Positions 3,291-19,881 of a stretch of DNA of 64,000 nucleotides are shown piece after piece. The notes under the pieces were generated by a model, which saw only the letters and a program-made list of their open reading frames with translations, did not search any database and was not told the DNA's origin. The translations under genes were made by a program, and so were the position numbers. The first letter of the stretch is position 1. Every line of letters begins with the position of its first letter. The DNA comes from Adlercreutzia hattorii (GTDB lineage Bacteria > Actinomycetota > Coriobacteriia > Coriobacteriales > Eggerthellaceae): assembly GCF_011405655.1 (NCBI RefSeq), contig NZ_AP022829.1, positions 124,001-188,000 of the forward strand. Direction: 5' to 3'.

Positions 3291-4253
3291 TTATTCGGGC
3301 TGGGAGATGCCAAACTCACGCATCAGCTCATCCCGGTAACTCTCTTCCGCAGCTGCCCGTCGAGCGTCGTCGAGCCGTTCGGCGCCCAAAAGCAACGCCA
3401 TCAGCGAAGCAACCTCGCTAGCCGCTTCCGCGCGGCCCTCGGCCAGGCCTTGCTCTCGGCCCTCGGCCAGGCCTTGCTCTCGGCCCTCGGCCAGGCCTTG
3501 CTCTCGGCCCTCGGCCAGGCCTTGCTCTCGGCCCTCGGCCAGGCCCTGTTCAAGGCCCTCGGCCAGGCCCTGTTCAAGCCCCATCTGGAGGCCGATTATT
3601 TGACCGCGCTCTTGTCCCTTTTTCTCAGCAATGCGCCTTTGAATTTCCATGTCTTCCTCAAACGTCAGCAACGCCATCTTCTCCTTCCGCCAATTCTCGT
3701 TTTTGTTGGCCTTTTTCACCGCAACGGCAAGCTGGCCCATAAGCGGATCTTCCCCGGCTTCCCCCGTCCAAACATAGTGTAGCAGGTTCCGCAAGCGCCC
3801 CTCGGGGAGCTTGCCCCAAGCAGGGGCGGATAGGGCTTTCCAAAGAAAGCCATGACCGATGCGCGCACTGGGTTTCTCCAAGCAGTTCACATCGAGCGTA
3901 TACACAGGAAGTCCTTCATCGAACGGATCGTGCATGCAGATGAAAATAATGATACAAGGAGGTAGCTCTTCGTAACCTTCTCCCTTCCGCAGAGTCAGCG
4001 TATCCAACGCTCCCTGGTAGTACCGCATTCTCCGTCCGAGGTCTTCTCGCTTGGTTGTCTGCATCTCAATATCGTAGATCTCGTTTTTCGTCTTCACGAA
4101 GGCATCGAGACGCACGCCGTGATTGGTGAGTGTTGGGCGAACGTCGTCTTCGGTGACGATATACTCGATATCTGCTATTGGCTCGAGGAGGTTCCCATGG
4201 ACACTGCAGCCGACATCGTCACGCAGCTCGCTACGCGCCAACCGCGATGGCAC
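3291..4253 (-). CDS. Rpn-family PD-(D/E)XK nuclease/putative transposase, 5'-truncated
   Basis: Recognisable from about residue 22 onward: GVRLDAFVKTKNEIYDIEMQT carries the D...ExQ part of the PD-(D/E)XK nuclease fold of the Rpn (YhgA-like, PDDEXK_2) family. The family's LRYYQ-type helix follows as MRYYQGALD, then CIIIFICMHDPF. Rpn proteins promote RecA-independent recombination. The usual N-terminal 50-60 residues are missing: the first 20 residues are not family-like and are antisense to a fragment of an AlbA_2-type gene (MDTAADIVTQLA on the plus strand near 4199). The C-terminal tail is a run of GLAEGREQ octapeptides encoded by a 24-bp tandem repeat. Probably a decayed copy, though the frame is open. 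Confidence 0.7.
   Translation of the reverse strand: MPSRLARSELRDDVGCSVHGNLLEPIADIEYIVTEDDVRPTLTNHGVRLDAFVKTKNEIYDIEMQTTKREDLGRRMRYYQGALDTLTLRKGEGYEELPPCIIIFICMHDPFDEGLPVYTLDVNCLEKPSARIGHGFLWKALSAPAWGKLPEGRLRNLLHYVWTGEAGEDPLMGQLAVAVKKANKNENWRKEKMALLTFEEDMEIQRRIAEKKGQERGQIIGLQMGLEQGLAEGLEQGLAEGREQGLAEGREQGLAEGREQGLAEGREQGLAEGRAEAASEVASLMALLLGAERLDDARRAAAEESYRDELMREFGISQPE
3433..3576. repeat. 24-bp tandem repeat, about 6 units, inside the Rpn gene
   Basis: Six consecutive 24-bp units. Four end in CCTTGCTCT and two are the variant ending CCCTGTTCAA. On the minus strand they encode an eight-residue GLAEGREQ/GLAEGLEQ repeat. The unit length is a multiple of three, so copy-number change keeps the frame. 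A shorter repeat of the same amino-acid style occurs in the second Rpn gene (19080-19139). Confidence 0.85.
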
Positions 4254-13992: not shown

Positions 13993-15402
13993 TCACACTA
14001 CTCCGCTGGAGTTCTCTCTTGTGGGCGCGGATAGGGACGGAAGCGTTATGCTGAACGAGTTCTCCTCATCGGAGCGCTTTCTCAGGCCGAGAGCCTCGGG
14101 CAGGCACGCCGTCACGTACCAGGGGAGGTAGACAACACGATCGCGCTGCTCCACATTGAGGCGCGAAAGCACGTAGCCCTTTTCAATCCCGTATTCCGGA
14201 GTGGCGAGCAGCTTGTTCAAAGCTTCATGGGCGCGGGGCGTGCGGCCCGACTTGATCTCAAGTGGAACTACGTCTCCCCGGGCATTTTCAACCAGGAAAT
14301 CAACCTCTCCCCTCTTGCGGTTCATGTAGTAGAACAGATCACACCCGCAAGCAGTAAGCGCCTGGGCGAACACGTTCTCGAACATGAATCCGAGATTGAG
14401 CGTGCGATCATCGCTGTACAAACCGCGCGCCACCGAAATGTCGTAGCGACTCGCCAGCATCCCCGTGTCCGACTCATACAGCTTGAAGTTCCCCGCGTCT
14501 TCCGTGGCCTTGAGAGGCCTCTTCGGATCGCGTACCACGTTGCATTTCAGGCCGACATGGGCCGAAACTAGCCAGTTGAAATCGAAGCTGAACTTGCTGT
14601 AGCGCGCATCCCTTCCTAGGGAGTTCAGTTGGAACCGCTGCGAGCGCGCGTCCAGCTGAAGGGGAAGCTGTTCGAAGATCGCCCTCACGGTTGGAGCCGC
14701 AGTGCCGGCGTATTTCGTGATGTCGTGAACATACGAAACCACCAGCTCAGCCTGAACCTCTCGCACCGGTCCCATATTGCCGGCGTTGTCGAGAAAGGCT
14801 TGCACTGCTGCAGGCATTCCCCCTACTACCATGTAGCTGCGGAAATAGCCGAGCAGGGCTTCGTGCAGGTAGCCAGGCACCGCCTGAAGGGACGTGCAGC
14901 AGTCCCGGACGACGGAAAGAGCCTCGTTCTGGACACCCATCGCCCAGCAGAACTCTTCGAAGTCCATAGGGAACATGGTGACCTCGGTCACAAAGCCCAC
15001 AGGATAGGAGCGCACGTGCTTCAGCTCGGTTCCCAACATCGAACCCGAGAACGCATAAGAGAATCGGCCGTCCTGAACAAGACCCTTCACCATGGTCATG
15101 AGGTCGGGAAGCTCCTGGATCTCGTCGATGAAGATCAGCGTCTCGCCAGGAACGAGGGGCTGATCAGCCATGAGAGAGAGGCGTGTTATGAGATCCGCTA
15201 CATTGGAGGCCTCAGCCAGCGAGCGCTTCGCCGCCTTATCGAGATAGAGATTGACCGTCAGAAGGCGCTGATACTTCTCGCGACCCAAGTACTCTACCAG
15301 ATAGCTTTTACCGATCTGGCGCGCACCTGTCACGAGAAGTGCTGTCTGACCACGTCGGGTCGCCCAACGCTGTAGAGAATCGTAGACCTTCCTGCGAAAC
15401 AA
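13993..15402 (-). CDS. AAA ATPase with DUF4143 domain (copy 1)
   Basis: A 469-residue protein of the AAA_14-DUF4143 type. The Walker A is GARQIGKS (residues 26-33), Walker B is LIFIDEIQELP (about 89-99), and a FSGSMLG sensor strand follows. The DUF4143 half contains GGMPAAVQAF and, near the C-terminus, the nuclease-like strand FYYMNRKRGEVDFLVEN...VPLEIKSG. These ATPases are common in gut bacteria and their role is unproven. The start is a TTG at 15402, with AAAGGAG about 7 nt before it. The region upstream (15449-15530) carries spaced A-tract repeats like those before copy 2. Confidence 0.8.
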   Translation of the reverse strand: MFRRKVYDSLQRWATRRGQTALLVTGARQIGKSYLVEYLGREKYQRLLTVNLYLDKAAKRSLAEASNVADLITRLSLMADQPLVPGETLIFIDEIQELPDLMTMVKGLVQDGRFSYAFSGSMLGTELKHVRSYPVGFVTEVTMFPMDFEEFCWAMGVQNEALSVVRDCCTSLQAVPGYLHEALLGYFRSYMVVGGMPAAVQAFLDNAGNMGPVREVQAELVVSYVHDITKYAGTAAPTVRAIFEQLPLQLDARSQRFQLNSLGRDARYSKFSFDFNWLVSAHVGLKCNVVRDPKRPLKATEDAGNFKLYESDTGMLASRYDISVARGLYSDDRTLNLGFMFENVFAQALTACGCDLFYYMNRKRGEVDFLVENARGDVVPLEIKSGRTPRAHEALNKLLATPEYGIEKGYVLSRLNVEQRDRVVYLPWYVTACLPEALGLRKRSDEENSFSITLPSLSAPTRENSSGVV

Positions 15403-15448
15403 GGAGGACTCCTTTCGCTGCTATCGTTTTGTCTATTCTAGCTGGGCT

Positions 15449-15530
15449 TTTTCAATAATGCAATTCTTTATTTGGTCGATTTTTACGATAATGTAACTCT
15501 TCATTTTGCAGAAATTGACGATTTTGCCGC
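15449..15530. repeat. A-tract iterons upstream of DUF4143 ATPase copy 1
   Basis: Read on the minus strand, two related units, CAAAATGAAGAGTTACATTA and CAAATAAAGAATTGCATTAT, are preceded by a third partial one (GGCAAAATCGTCAATTTCT). The A-tracts recur at spacings of about 11 and 22-23 bp. This is a looser version of the perfect array at 18528-18619, and it also lies just upstream of a DUF4143 ATPase. Confidence 0.55.
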
Positions 15531-15567
15531 TTTTCATGGCTTCGGGCTTACCAGTTCTTTGTACTAG

Positions 15568-16790
15568 TCAAGCTTCGTAGACACTTTTTCCATCTTCCCC
15601 GTGGCAATGGTGGACACCAGAGCTGGAATCCGCATCGCGTTCGTAGACACTGGAGCTGTTTTTCTTTAGAGGGACGTAGACACCGGCATCGAAGCAGAGG
15701 AGCTCGCTTGTGCCGATCGCGTTGCTTTCGGCATCGGCCTCGGCCCTTGCGAGCTTCTCGCGCACGAACTTCGGCGTCGGGTCGATCACGCGACCCGCGA
15801 ACGTGTCGCGCCTCTCCACCTCCCCCGCCATGAAGGCGTCGTAGAAGTCGTTCGGCGTCATGTACCCGAGAGACCAGCAAGGTCGCTTCGCGTTGTACCA
15901 CTCGATGTAGTCGTCGACCACCTGCTCCACCTCCCAATCCCGCTTGTCGTAGAGCCCGAAGTCCGTGAAGAGCTCCTCCTTGATCCAGCCGTTCAAAGAC
16001 TCGTTCACGGGGTTGTCCGTGGGCTTGCCCGCGCGCGAGCACGAGCGGACGATGCTGCTCTCGCGGATGATCTCGTTGTAGGCCTTGGATGTGTAGACGC
16101 TCCCCTGGTCGGTGTGCAGCACGCAGATGTCGCCCGATCCCGCCTCCAGCCTCCCCACGGCCTCCGCCCTGGATCTCTCGATCTCCTCCCTCGCCTGCTC
16201 GAGGCCGTCGTGGTAGATGCCCGGCCAGCCGCGTCTTTTCGTGAGGCCGCGCCCTATGATCTGCTTCGTGAACACGTCGAAGTAAAGAGCGAGCTCCCAG
16301 TACCTGCTCCGCGTCCAGAACGCCGTCATGTCGGAGACTATCACCTGGCGCGGGCGATCGACCGTCTCCCACGTGGAGAAGATGAGGTTGGGGTAAGGAT
16401 CGCGCGCCTTGCGCTCGCGATCCTTCTTCTGATGCTTGGTCTCGGCGCGTATGCCCAGGTAGAGAAAGCATCTCCTGACGTATTCCGCGGACACCGTTAT
16501 GCCATCGCTCCTCTTGAGGTAGGCGTGCACCCACCGGTACCCGTGCGAGGGGTGGGCGTCGTGGCAGCCTTGCACCAGCCGCAGCACCTTCGCGCGGTCT
16601 TTCGGCGGATCCCCGCCCCTCTTCCTCCACTTGTAGAAGCCGGAGCGGCTCACGCCGCACAGGCTGCAGAGCCCGGTTACAGGGAACTCCTTCGAGAGCG
16701 CCTCGATGATCGCGCACTCTTCTCGGATACAGGCACGAACTCTCCCGGCGTCCCATCTTCTCTCGGGATCCGGATGTAGCCTTTTTTTAG
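15568..16790 (-). CDS. IS3-family transposase OrfB (rve DDE integrase), made by -1 frameshift
   Basis: The catalytic domain carries the DDE triad in order: VSDMTAFW, LHTDQGSVYTS and NPVNESLNGWIKEE. An N-terminal helix-turn-helix segment precedes it (VTGLCSLCGVSRSGFYKWRK, HTH_21). No strong start codon opens the frame; it would be reached from orfA by slipping at the AAAAAAAG run (16782-16788 on the plus strand is T7), joining ERLKK to RLHPDPERRW. The C-terminal extension past the usual IS3 end contains two SVYE repeats encoded by the terminal GTAGACAC motifs. It looks functional: all catalytic residues are present. Confidence 0.8.
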
Positions 16791-17057
16791 TCGCTCCAGC
16801 TCGATTCTGGTCTTGATGAGCTCGCGGCGCAGGGTCTCCTCCGTCTCGTCCACGCCCTCGGGAAGCAGGCTCGGCGTCTTCTTCGAGCGATACAGCCCGG
16901 AGAGCCCCTCGGCGCCGTACTTCTTGAGCCAGGTCTTGAACGCCGCCTCGCTCACGTTGTTGGCGCGGCAGAAGTCGGAGAGCTTGATGTCGGGATTGCT
17001 CCTGTAGAGCCTTATCAGGAGCTCCTTCTCCAGAGGGTTGAGTATATTGTTGGACAT
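16677..17057 (-). CDS. IS3-family transposase OrfA (HTH)
   Basis: 127 residues starting MSNNILNPLEKELLIRLY. The start at 17057 is chosen because the family-like sequence begins there. It contains a helix-turn-helix (LSDFCRANNVSEAAFKTWLK) and a C-terminal leucine-zipper-like helix (ETLRRELIKTRIELERLKK) that ends at the slippery A7G site. The zero-frame product continues for a short basic tail and stops at 16677. OrfA normally binds the IS ends and, as the OrfAB fusion, supplies DNA recognition to the transposase. Confidence 0.8.
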   Translation of the reverse strand: MSNNILNPLEKELLIRLYRSNPDIKLSDFCRANNVSEAAFKTWLKKYGAEGLSGLYRSKKTPSLLPEGVDETEETLRRELIKTRIELERLKKGYIRIPREDGTPGEFVPVSEKSARSSRRSRRSSL

Positions 17058-17170
17058 GGCAGGCTCCCATCGTTCGGAAAGAGGCGATGGCGACTCCATT
17101 ATCGCCATCGCCGACAGACTTTTGAAGATGGAATTCCGGAATTCACTGTCTACTTAGACATTAGCAGCAC

Positions 17171-18469
17171 TCAGGCGCCGAGGGCGCGCAGGGGAATGAC
17201 GTAGATACCCTCTTCGGCTTGGTAGGCATACTCGCCCGTGCCCGTCAGAACCGCCACGAATTCGGGCGGCCGGGTGCGCGCATGGGGGTTGCGCGTCACC
17301 TTCTCACGCACGCGCTTCAGAGTCGCCACGCCCGCATCGGCCTTCGCGATGCCCAGCTTGAACTCGAAGGCTGCCCACCGCCCGTCGGGCAGCTCGACTA
17401 TGGCGTCCGCCTCAAGGCCGGCGTCGTCGCGGTAATACCTCACCGGCACGGCCGGAGCATCGGGCAGCGCCTGCGCGTACACCATGAGGTCGCGCACGCA
17501 CATGTTCTCGAACACCAGCCCGAACGTCTGCCAATCGGCGAGAAGCGCCTCCTCGTTCATGCCGAGGAGCGCCACGGCCAGGGAGGGGTCGGCGAGGTAG
17601 CGCTTCGGCTTCACCGAGAGCCGTTTAGGGGATCGCCTCGCCGGCACCCAGCCCGGCACCTCTTCGATTACATACATATTCTTCAGCAGCTCGAGGTACG
17701 AGGCCACCGTAGCTGTCGTCGTCAAGGGCTCATCGCCGCCCGATACGTCCGCGAGAAGCGTCTTGTAAGTTGCTGCCTGCCCCAGGTTTCGCGCGAGGGA
17801 AAGCGCGATGCGCCGTGCCAAACCTCCGTCTCGGCCGTGGCGCGGGACGCTTTCCGAGAACAATAGGTTCAGGTACTCCCTTGCGGTGAGAAGAGATTGG
17901 CTCGGGGAAAGATCCAACGTCTCGGGCCAACCACCGCGGCACGCCGCAGCGGCAAGGGAGGCCGCGTCCCCCGGCACCGTGGCCCGCGCAAATTCTCCGC
18001 GGAAAAGCGCGGCCAGGGAAACCTGACCTGTCGAGTCGCCCGATTCGGCAAGGCTCATCGGGTGCATGCGAATGCGGCCTATGCGGCCGGCGCCGCTGTG
18101 CATCGCTCTCGCCTGATCCTCGTCTTTCGCGAGAGGGGTGGAAGAGCCCGTTAAAAGCCACGCGCCGCGCAGCCCCCGCTTGCGATCCACGGCATGGCGA
18201 ACGGTGTTCCAGATGGCCGGTGCAAGTTGCCACTCATCAATGACGTGGGGCTGCTCGCCCGCAAGCATCGCCTGAGGGTCGGATTGGGCTAGGGCCAGGG
18301 CGTCGTCGACGTAGCTGACGCTTTCGCCGTGGCGACAGGCCGTCCAGGTTTTCCCGCACCATTTCGTTCCGGCCACTTCCACCGCCCCGAAAATCTCAAG
18401 GTAGCGGCGCACTTGGTCGTCGACAATGCGAGGCAGGTATTCGTCTCGCGGAGGCAGTTCGTTGGGCAT
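17171..18469 (-). CDS. AAA ATPase with DUF4143 domain (copy 2)
   Basis: 432 residues. The Walker A is GTKWCGKT (34-41), Walker B is HVIDEWQ (about 76-82), then a WLLTGSSTPL sensor strand and RIGRIRMHPMSLAESGDS. A DUF4143 half follows (GGWPETL, SYLELLKNMYVIEEVP) with a nuclease-like strand YYRDDAGLEADAIVELPDGR then WAAFEFKLG. It is only distantly related to copy 1, so this is not a recent duplication. It starts 59 bp downstream of a perfect four-unit 23-bp iteron array, which suggests the repeats are an operator or target. The IS3 element ends about 10 bp beyond its stop. Confidence 0.8.
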   Translation of the reverse strand: MPNELPPRDEYLPRIVDDQVRRYLEIFGAVEVAGTKWCGKTWTACRHGESVSYVDDALALAQSDPQAMLAGEQPHVIDEWQLAPAIWNTVRHAVDRKRGLRGAWLLTGSSTPLAKDEDQARAMHSGAGRIGRIRMHPMSLAESGDSTGQVSLAALFRGEFARATVPGDAASLAAAACRGGWPETLDLSPSQSLLTAREYLNLLFSESVPRHGRDGGLARRIALSLARNLGQAATYKTLLADVSGGDEPLTTTATVASYLELLKNMYVIEEVPGWVPARRSPKRLSVKPKRYLADPSLAVALLGMNEEALLADWQTFGLVFENMCVRDLMVYAQALPDAPAVPVRYYRDDAGLEADAIVELPDGRWAAFEFKLGIAKADAGVATLKRVREKVTRNPHARTRPPEFVAVLTGTGEYAYQAEEGIYVIPLRALGA

Positions 18470-18527
18470 AGCGCGCTCCTGTTCGCGTTTCGCTTCTTAG
18501 CGCATTGTAGCCTTTACCGGGTGTTTC

Positions 18528-18619
18528 CGATAGTCACTTTGCAAAATCCTAAAATTTCACTTTGTATTTTCCGACATTCTCACTTTGCAAAATCCGAAGA
18601 TTCCACTTTGTATTTTCCG
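18528..18619 (-). repeat. Perfectly phased 4 x 23-bp iteron array upstream of DUF4143 ATPase copy 2
   Basis: On the minus strand four units of exactly 23 bp follow without gaps, two beginning CGGAAAATACAAAGTG and two beginning (C/A)GGATTTTGCAAAGTG, in alternating order. The shared core is GGA(A/T)3-4(T/A)(G/A)CAAAGTG. Two helical turns per unit would place all sites on one face of the DNA. The array ends 59 bp before the ATPase start. Confidence 0.85.
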
Positions 18620-18661
18620 GATTTTGCTTCGAGCTTCGAGCAGGCGGATGTCAAACCCCCC

Positions 18662-18780
18662 AATCTTGGCGTGGCGGGCACCAGATCCCGGCTCCTGAAG
18701 AGGGACGATTGATTGTCATATTCAAAATAACGAGATTTTACAAGAAAAACGAGACTTTCAGGTACAAAATAACGAAGATT
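18662..18780 (+). repeat. About 120-bp direct repeat, left copy
   Basis: Shares AATCTTGGCGTGGCGGGCAC, then a GATTGATTGTCATATTCAAA block and a CAGGTACAAAATAACGAAGA end with 19760-19881. The second half contains AACGAGATT/AACGAGACT/AACGAAGATT units at about 19-23 bp spacing, the same A-tract-plus-GA style as the DUF4143-linked iterons. No ATPase follows it. Together with the right copy it flanks the Rpn gene. Confidence 0.85.
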
Positions 18781-18947
18781 GGAAGGGGCGAGCTGTAGCG
18801 CTGTTAGATTTTCGGCAGCGAGATCTTCGGCAATCCTGCTTCGGGAAGGAGAACCTCACCGCACTTGCGGCTCGTGCCGAAATCCAGTGTCACTCGCTAT
18901 GAAATCAGCGCAGCTGGAAACGGGAATAATCAGTAGGGCGTTTTGCG

Positions 18948-19721
18948 CTATAGGGAGTACTCTTTCAGGAGGCGCTCTAGGGCTTCCTGATCACCAAGAA
19001 GCAAAATGTCTTGCTCTCTCCCGTCTGCGAGAAGGCGGTTGATTAACGCTGAGATGCGAGCGGCCTCTTCCTTCTTTCCTTGCTCGAGGCCTTGCTCGAG
19101 GCCTTGCTCGAGGCCCTGCTCGAGGCCCTGCTCGAGGCCCTGCTCTTCTCCGGCCTCATAGCCCTGCTTGAACCCCACTTCGCTATAGAACTTCTTAGCT
19201 TGGCGAACACGACGCTCGGCGTTGGCCTCCACAGTACTGACGGATATCATCTCGCTCATCACCTTATCATCGTCGTTGGCCGCTACAACCAGACGGTCAA
19301 TTTGGGCCACAAGATCATCGCCCTCCGTAACGGTACCGTCCTCGATGTATTGTAGCAAGGATCGCAGCTTCTCGTCGTCCTCTTTTACCCACGCGCTTCC
19401 GTTAAGGACGATCCACGTGCAGCGCGTATCCAGCTGACAGTCATTATTCTCCAAGCACCTCGGTTCAATGGTATACACGGGGAGACCGCAGCCGAACGAA
19501 TCGTGAACGCAGAGAAAGATAATATAGCTGCGAGGTAAGTCCTCGTAGTCATCTCCTTTGTGGAGCAGATCGCTATCGATCACCGATTGGTAATAGCGGA
19601 GTCTGCATCCAAGGTAGTATTCAGCCTGCGCTTGCATTTCGATGTTGAAGGCTTTTCCCTCCCCTTTTACATAAGCGTCGAGCCTCACGCCGCGACCCTC
19701 AATGCTGGGATCAATTGACAA
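18948..19721 (-). CDS. Rpn-family PD-(D/E)XK nuclease/putative transposase, 5'-truncated (copy 2)
   Basis: The 257 codons start abruptly at SIDPSIEGRGVRLDAYVKGE, i.e. in the middle of the family's nuclease core (GVRLDAYVK...FNIEMQ supplies the D and ExQ residues). It continues with LRYYQSVIDSDLL and YIIFLCVHDSFG. The N-terminal 50-60 residues normally present are absent and the only start is a TTG. The C-terminal region carries EQGL repeats from a 12-bp tandem repeat, then a conserved helical tail (INRLLADGREQDILLL). It is bounded by two direct repeats of about 120 bp, so it may have been delivered or cut back by recombination between them. Confidence 0.7.
   Translation of the reverse strand: MSIDPSIEGRGVRLDAYVKGEGKAFNIEMQAQAEYYLGCRLRYYQSVIDSDLLHKGDDYEDLPRSYIIFLCVHDSFGCGLPVYTIEPRCLENNDCQLDTRCTWIVLNGSAWVKEDDEKLRSLLQYIEDGTVTEGDDLVAQIDRLVVAANDDDKVMSEMISVSTVEANAERRVRQAKKFYSEVGFKQGYEAGEEQGLEQGLEQGLEQGLEQGLEQGKKEEAARISALINRLLADGREQDILLLGDQEALERLLKEYSL
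19080..19139. repeat. 12-bp tandem repeat (5 units) inside the Rpn gene
   Basis: Five consecutive TTGCTCGAGGCC/CTGCTCGAGGCC units encode EQGL on the minus strand. Both Rpn genes in the window have in-frame repeats in this linker, but the nucleotide units differ (12 bp here, 24 bp at 3433), so they arose separately. Confidence 0.85.
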
Positions 19722-19759: not shown

Positions 19760-19881
19760 AATCTTGGCATGGCGGGCACCAGGTCCCGGATCCTGAGGAG
19801 GGACGGTTGATTGTCATATTCAAAATAACGAGGTTTTACAAGCAAAAAAACGAGAACTTCAGGTACAAAATAACGAAGATT
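19760..19881 (+). repeat. About 120-bp direct repeat, right copy
   Basis: Matches 18662-18780 with scattered substitutions and 1-3 nt indels in the A-tracts. It ends about 20 bp before the stop of the signal-peptidase gene at 19901. AACGAGG, AACGAGA and AACGAAG are spaced 22 and 23 bp apart here. Confidence 0.85.

What the first reader, a model, noticed from the sequence alone, without database searches (positions are those of the whole stretch)
18528..18619. Four perfectly phased 23-bp iterons upstream of a DUF4143 ATPase
The units alternate between two types, with GGAAAATACAAAGTG and GGATTTTGCAAAGTG, and every unit is 23 bp. This is a strong sign of a cooperative DNA-binding site. The ATPase starts 59 bp away, and the other DUF4143 gene in the window has a looser A-tract array in the same place. 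DUF4143/AAA_14 proteins are widespread yet have no agreed function. An ATPase that recognises its own iterons, for regulation or DNA transactions, would be a new kind of module.
Basis: partly seen in the sequence, partly recalled or inferred. Interest (0 to 1): 0.7.

Follow-up and report, generated by a model that had tools for sequence, protein, structure and literature searches.

The report
ATPase-nuclease reading its own promoter repeats
A very common but uncharacterised bacterial and archaeal ATPase-nuclease (a predicted anti-phage gene) almost always carries a private array of evenly spaced repeats in front of its own gene, and the bases of those repeats change together with two specific amino acids of the protein, so the protein almost certainly reads its own promoter.

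Summary
The four 23-bp units are real (cores 18536-18623, minus strand), 66 bp before an AAA_14-DUF4143 gene (17171-18469), and they alternate as described. They are one case of a broad rule. Of 15 DUF4143 genes in this genome, 14 have their own direct-repeat array just upstream, against 17 of 181 control genes (Fisher 4e-12). In 158 relatives of the window protein, from bacterial and archaeal phyla, the best repeat lag is 22-23 bp in 151. A sister clade, to which the window's second DUF4143 gene belongs, has 32-33 bp in 84 of 99. Other DUF4143 clades, PF09820 and DUF234 ATPases lack such arrays. Each array has its own sequence. Two variable blocks, about one helical turn apart, covary with two residues. 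Block 2 follows residue 253, in the winged-helix recognition helix. Block 1 follows residue 349, a loop beside the PD-(D/E)XK active site. The effects dissociate, replicate in split data and include a register-free check. So the protein very probably binds its own iterons. The array ends at the promoter and the motif is found nowhere else in the genome, which favours autoregulation, most likely repression. PADLOC calls the protein PDC-S01, an untested defence candidate. No paper found reports the arrays.

The parts
17171..18469 (-). AAA_14-DUF4143 ATPase/nuclease gene (432 aa; PADLOC PDC-S01), subfamily A
   Evidence: Pfam DUF4143 3.5e-29, AAA_14 6.2e-8; PADLOC PDC-S01 2.6e-55; AlphaFold model pLDDT 94.8
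18601..18623 (-). iteron unit 1 (first type) AATCCGGAAAATACAAAGTGGAA
18578..18600 (-). iteron unit 2 (second type) TCTTCGGATTTTGCAAAGTGAGA
18555..18577 (-). iteron unit 3 (first type) ATGTCGGAAAATACAAAGTGAAA
18536..18554 (-). iteron unit 4, core only (second type) TTTTAGGATTTTGCAAAGT
18504..18509 (-). possible -10 element TACAAT of the gene's promoter (no good -35; the consensus scan found no promoter)
   Evidence: read from sequence; one search found none
17594..17830 (-). winged-helix region (residues 214-292); residue 253 (codon 17711-17713) at the start of the recognition helix covaries with iteron block 2 (positions 13-16)
17357..17443 (-). PD-(D/E)XK strands, residues 343-371 (D355, E369, K371 invariant); residue 349 (codon 17423-17425) covaries with iteron block 1 (positions 5-7)
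13993..15402 (-). second AAA_14-DUF4143 gene of the window (PDC-S01, subfamily B)
15447..15540 (-). its own upstream direct-repeat array, period 33 bp
   Evidence: (p 0.005)

Best explanation
The array is the protein's own operator. The AAA_14-DUF4143 protein (STAND/NB-ARC-like ATPase core, winged helix, C-terminal PD-(D/E)XK nuclease domain) binds the 23-bp units directly and probably cooperatively. The recognition helix reads one 4-bp block; a loop next to the nuclease active site reads another about one helical turn away. Filling the array, whose last unit abuts or covers the -35/spacer region, most likely represses the protein's own promoter and keeps a potentially harmful nuclease low and parked on its own gene until a signal, probably acting through the ATPase, releases it. 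Shown by sequence statistics: the arrays, their fixed spacing, clade specificity, position before the gene, and residue-to-base covariation. Inferred: physical binding, cooperativity, repression rather than activation, nuclease activity, and a defence role with release on infection.
For: Enrichment: 14/15 vs 17/181 genes. Lag 22-23 bp in 151/158 subfamily-A genes, 32-33 in 84/99 subfamily-B genes; clades supported by tree. Unit anatomy: two blocks constant inside an array but variable between arrays (positions 3-7, 13-16), flanked by A-rich positions common to all. Covariation: residue 349 K->GCC, D->CGG, Y->AAA; residue 253 D/E->C14 and G16. Identity-matched pairs (60-75%): block 1 differs in 40% when residue 349 is the same, 90% when it differs; block 2 64% vs 97% for residue 253; crossed pairs show no such effect. 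Tree-independent pairs agree (5.6:0.0, 6.5:0.1). Rank 1-2 of about 345 columns in two separate data sets, rank 1 in 10 of 10 random halves. Register-free: CCAA at 22/23-bp spacing in 24/33 K349 vs 5/119 others. Position: array only 5' of gene, last core median 43 bp before start, -10-like element 4-7 bp after last core in 31/152 vs 6.7 shuffled. Motif not found elsewhere in own genome.
Against: No binding or expression data. The -10 geometry is clear in only about a fifth of arrays, and in the window gene the possible -10 lies 26 bp past the array with no good -35. An activator of the MalT kind would sit in a similar place; -35 matches are only slightly above background (3.3 vs 2.65-3.0). Subfamily B shows the arrays, but its residue covariation was inconclusive twice. 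Sites of paralogues in one genome are no more different than protein divergence predicts (p 0.28).
Confidence: 0.6

Rival explanations
1. The protein binds its iterons as an activator, like the STAND activator MalT on its repeated boxes: the promoter-proximal unit replaces a weak -35 and the protein turns on its own synthesis (positive feedback after a signal).
For: STAND-like fold (Foldseek also lists a maltose-system regulator chain, 8bob); proximal unit at the -35/spacer and mostly poor -35 matches.
Against: Some promoters have a good -35 inside the last unit (L190 TTGACA). A stand-alone nuclease with strong positive feedback would be risky (inference).
Confidence: 0.2
2. The iterons are the cleavage or processing site of the nuclease domain: block 1 is read beside the active site, so the protein cuts or nicks its own array when activated (self-inflicted break, excision, or origin-like nicking).
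For: Residue 349 lies six residues before invariant catalytic D355 (D355/E369/K371 invariant) and determines block 1.
Against: Arrays are intact and widespread; no second array at the other end of the gene in 74 of 76 loci, so not a transposon. A PD-(D/E)XK fold can serve for binding alone.
Confidence: 0.13
3. A different host regulator binds the arrays and the protein only evolves alongside.
For: Covariation alone cannot prove contact.
Against: Specificity tracks two residues of the encoded protein, in domains able to bind DNA, with a clean double dissociation; paralogues in one genome carry different arrays, and no single regulator could follow them.
Confidence: 0.05
4. The repeats are chance, AT-rich low complexity or a by-product of replication slippage.
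For: Upstream regions are AT-rich.
Against: Dinucleotide-shuffle p values, the fixed lag (22-23 or 32-33) across phyla, control genes and control clades.
Confidence: 0.01

Closest known systems
PDC-S01 (PADLOC phage-defence candidate; AAA_14-DUF4143)
   Same: Both window genes match PDC-S01 models. PMC12988326 describes PDC-S01 as an ATPase fused to PD-(D/E)XK, fourth most common defence system in prokaryotes, found by guilt-by-embedding, most PDCs not validated.
   Different: No report found of the iteron arrays, their fixed spacing or the recognition code.
RptR, autorepressor of a defence island (PMC12255303)
   Same: Three direct repeats overlapping the -10 of its own promoter, stepwise binding that is weak on a single repeat, repression of a defence locus.
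   Different: RptR is a separate 9-kDa repressor with 9-bp repeats and one palindromic site; here the ATPase-nuclease itself appears to be the DNA-binding protein, with 23- or 33-bp units and diversified sites.
MalT-type STAND activators binding repeated boxes
   Same: STAND ATPase with multiple direct sites at a promoter (established knowledge; a maltose-system chain, 8bob, is among the fold hits).
   Different: MalT reads DNA with a LuxR-type HTH and activates other operons (own knowledge); here the winged helix and the nuclease domain covary with the site, and the only site found is the protein's own promoter.
Cdc6/Orc1 initiators on origin boxes, and iteron-binding plasmid Rep proteins
   Same: AAA+ plus winged helix on repeated sites (Foldseek 2qby).
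   Different: No origin context is known here; the array sits in the gene's promoter region; extra PD-(D/E)XK domain.

Membership tests
AAA_14-DUF4143 (Pfam PF13173 + PF13635) | both domains over their cut-offs | tested here: met
PDC-S01 (PADLOC) | match to PDC-S01 profile | tested here: met
   2.6e-55 and 4.6e-175
PDC-S01 (PADLOC) | protects against phage | not testable with these tools
   literature says unvalidated
STAND/NB-ARC-like NTPases | NBD-helical-winged-helix core fold | tested here: met
   VIA-align Z 15.4 to 2qen, 13.5 to 2fna, 12.9 to NLR RPP1, 12.5 to CED-4
STAND/NB-ARC-like NTPases | clade-specific sequence motifs and nucleotide switch | not tested
   -
PD-(D/E)XK nucleases | catalytic D...E-x-K | tested here: met
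   D355, E369, K371 invariant in 61 aligned sequences; strands in model; activity not tested
Autorepressed defence loci (RptR-like) | direct repeats at or overlapping own promoter | tested here: met
   for the window gene the array abuts rather than overlaps the presumed promoter
Autorepressed defence loci (RptR-like) | measured repression of own promoter | not testable with these tools
   -
Transposon or homing element with terminal repeats | matching sites at both ends | tested here: not met
   241 sites upstream, 16 elsewhere in 76 loci, of which 11 extend one array and 5 lie downstream in two loci
Iteron-type replication initiator | iterons in an origin that drives replication | not tested
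   -

The most novel reading that the evidence does not exclude
The array is both operator and substrate: a STAND ATPase-nuclease stays inactive on a private, readily re-specified set of sites in its own promoter, and when triggered its PD-(D/E)XK domain, already docked on block 1, cuts there or is released. Specificity is set by two easily changed residues (253 and 349), so paralogues stay orthogonal.
Probability: 0.15. Interest if true: 0.95.

Novelty: new variant of a known kind. Interest (0 to 1): 0.85.

Why it matters
PDC-S01 is reported as one of the most common candidate defence genes in prokaryotes, with no known mechanism. A near-universal, protein-specific array in front of two of its clades gives a first handle on how it works: it says what DNA the protein binds, with which residues, and predicts base changes for given residue changes. 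It makes DNA binding, regulation and nuclease activity directly testable with a short synthetic DNA, and offers a natural set of hundreds of protein-site pairs for a DNA-recognition code in which a nuclease-fold loop reads bases.

Tried and rejected
Chance or AT-richness: rejected by shuffles, control genes and control clades. Mobile element with two ends: no second array in 74 of 76 loci. Regulon: the exact motif occurs only in the array. Comparison families: PF09820 ATPases show no arrays (0 of 12); DUF234 ATPases show none of 23 or 33 bp, one palindromic 30-bp-spaced repeat at L383. Selection for orthogonality between paralogues beyond protein divergence: not seen (p 0.28). Subfamily B residue-base covariation: two attempts, inconclusive because the register of its arrays is uncertain. 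Exception L123 (lag 33 with an A-type protein): it also has a 23-bp-spaced array right before TATAAT; the 33-bp array lies further upstream. A Bacteroidota phylum scan for subfamily A gave few hits; viral contigs only 9; PHROGs none. No solved structure by sequence for the whole protein. Sigma-70 promoter scan of the window region found nothing.

Full report
Observation. Four 23-bp direct repeats lie on the minus strand at 18536-18623, 66 bp before the ATG (18469) of an AAA_14-DUF4143 gene. Types alternate: units 1/3 share 16 of 19 core bases, units 2/4 share 17, crossed pairs 11-12. TRF reports period 23 and lag 23 beats dinucleotide shuffles of the same region. The second DUF4143 gene in the window (13993-15402) has its own array with a 33-bp period.

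It is a rule, not a local oddity. The genome (2.9 Mb, held as G000) has 15 DUF4143 genes. Printed side by side, almost every one is preceded by direct repeats of different sequence. With a simple statistic (best ungapped self-match at lags 18-38 in the 200 bp upstream), 14 of 15 reach score 9.5 or more with p at most 0.02, against 17 of 181 control genes of the same genome that reach that score (Fisher 4e-12). Strong arrays fall into two periods: about 23 bp and about 33 bp.

Breadth. Relatives of the window protein from 60 genomes and 80 loci from other bacterial and archaeal species show the same thing: in the second set 67 of 77 arrays pass p 0.01, 64 of them at lag 23. Over 158 distinct subfamily-A genes the best lag is 23 in 145 and 22 in 6 (six rows of other clades left out). 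A sister subfamily (B) has 32-33 bp in 84 of 99. In a tree of 81 DUF4143 proteins from 13 genomes, clade B (36 rows, SH-aLRT 100) has 26 arrays of 32-34 bp and clade A (23 rows, 100) has 19 of 22-23 bp, while two other clades have almost none. PF09820 ATPases (0 of 12) and DUF234 ATPases also lack 23- or 33-bp arrays. So the signal belongs to these two clades. 23 and 33 bp differ by about one turn of DNA (inference: same geometry, one turn more).

Anatomy of the unit. 152 arrays were placed in one register (the placing used protein similarity as a guide). Positions 3-7 and 13-16 are almost constant inside an array (1.6-2.0 bits) but differ between arrays (0.1-0.4 bits). Positions 8-11 and 17-23 are mostly A-rich in all. 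The two variable blocks are about 10 bp apart, as expected for two major-groove contacts on one face.

The protein reads the array. Mutual information between protein columns and iteron positions gives residue 253 first for block 2 (z 7.5, 6.6, 4.9), with neighbours T252, E247 and T251 among the next four, and residue 349 first for block 1 (z 7.8). The mapping is chemically sensible: K349 goes with GCC, D with CGG, E with CG, Y with AAA; D/E253 with C14 and G16. Among protein pairs of 60-75% identity, block 1 differs in 40% when residue 349 is the same and 90% when it is different; block 2 in 64% and 97% for residue 253; residue 253 has no such effect on block 1 nor 349 on block 2. On a tree that leaves those columns out, independent pairs go the same way (349=K with CC 5.6:0.0; 253=K with G15 6.5:0.1) and crossed pairs do not; the acidic-253 comparisons lean the same way without reaching significance. 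In two separate data sets and ten random halves the two residues rank first or second of about 345 columns for their own block and near the bottom for the other. A test without any register: CCAA repeated at 22/23 bp occurs in 24 of 33 arrays with K349 and 5 of 119 others. In the AlphaFold model (pLDDT 94.8) residue 253 starts the recognition helix of a winged helix and residue 349 is in the loop before the strand with D355 of the PD-(D/E)XK site (D355, E369, K371 invariant).

Fold. The core resembles archaeal AAA+ ATPases 2qen and 2fna, plant NLRs, CED-4 and Apaf-1, that is STAND/NB-ARC-like; Cdc6/Orc1 on origin DNA is also among Foldseek's hits.

Place and mechanism. The array lies only 5' of the gene. 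Arrays have mostly 3-4 units; the last core ends a median 43 bp before the start codon and base composition falls to background right after it. A TATAAT-like hexamer sits just (3-7 bp) beyond the last core in 31 of 152 arrays against 6.7 in shuffled tails, so the last unit covers the -35 and spacer there. In the window gene the possible -10 (TACAAT, 18504-18509) lies further away. The exact motif is found nowhere else in the genome. I therefore favour an autoregulatory operator and, by position, repression; activation by a MalT-like arrangement and cleavage of the array remain open.

Known or new. Both window proteins match PADLOC's PDC-S01, which PMC12988326 ranks as the fourth most common defence system across prokaryotes and describes as an ATPase fused to PD-(D/E)XK, with validation pending for most such candidates. 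The open-access papers searched do not mention these arrays; subscription journals and preprints could not be searched. The closest tested parallel is RptR, a small separate repressor on three direct repeats of a defence-island promoter. Here the putative effector itself appears to be the DNA-binding protein. I file the module as a new variant of a known kind (autoregulation through direct repeats) with unusual parts.

Limits. All evidence is from sequence. Binding, cooperativity, repression, nuclease activity and a role in defence are inferred. Covariation could not be repeated for subfamily B. The start codons used were chosen by rule, so a few upstream regions may be misplaced.

Noticed in passing
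18712-18790 and 19812-19881: Two copies of an orphan three-unit array (AAAATAACGA..., spacing about 21-23 bp) lie in a roughly 130-bp direct duplication that flanks the Rpn-family (PDDEXK_2) gene 18948-19721; perhaps the operator of a lost DUF4143 gene.
   Followed up: partly
L142 upstream of the gene: A very long array: 11 further in-phase units at 23-bp spacing beyond the 220 bp examined.
   Followed up: no
L110 and L115, just after the stop codon: A second short array with the same unit lies downstream of the gene, same orientation.
   Followed up: no
L123 2297-2385: A Saccharibacteria gene of subfamily A has its 23-bp array and, further upstream, a separate three-copy 33-bp array.
   Followed up: partly
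L166: A DUF4143 gene outside clades A and B also has a 23-bp array, so arrays may be wider than the two clades.
   Followed up: no
L383 (own genome 2105353-2105628, minus): A DUF234 ATPase gene is preceded by two palindromic repeats (ATTATACTTTGAAGTATAAT) 30 bp apart, a different kind of operator-like site.
   Followed up: no
19081-19145 and 3433-3569: 12-bp and 24-bp tandem repeats; the first encodes an EQGL tract in the Rpn gene, the second lies close to another PDDEXK_2 gene (window 3915-4184).
   Followed up: no
15568-17108: An IS3-family transposase and its helix-turn-helix ORF lie between the two DUF4143 genes.
   Followed up: no
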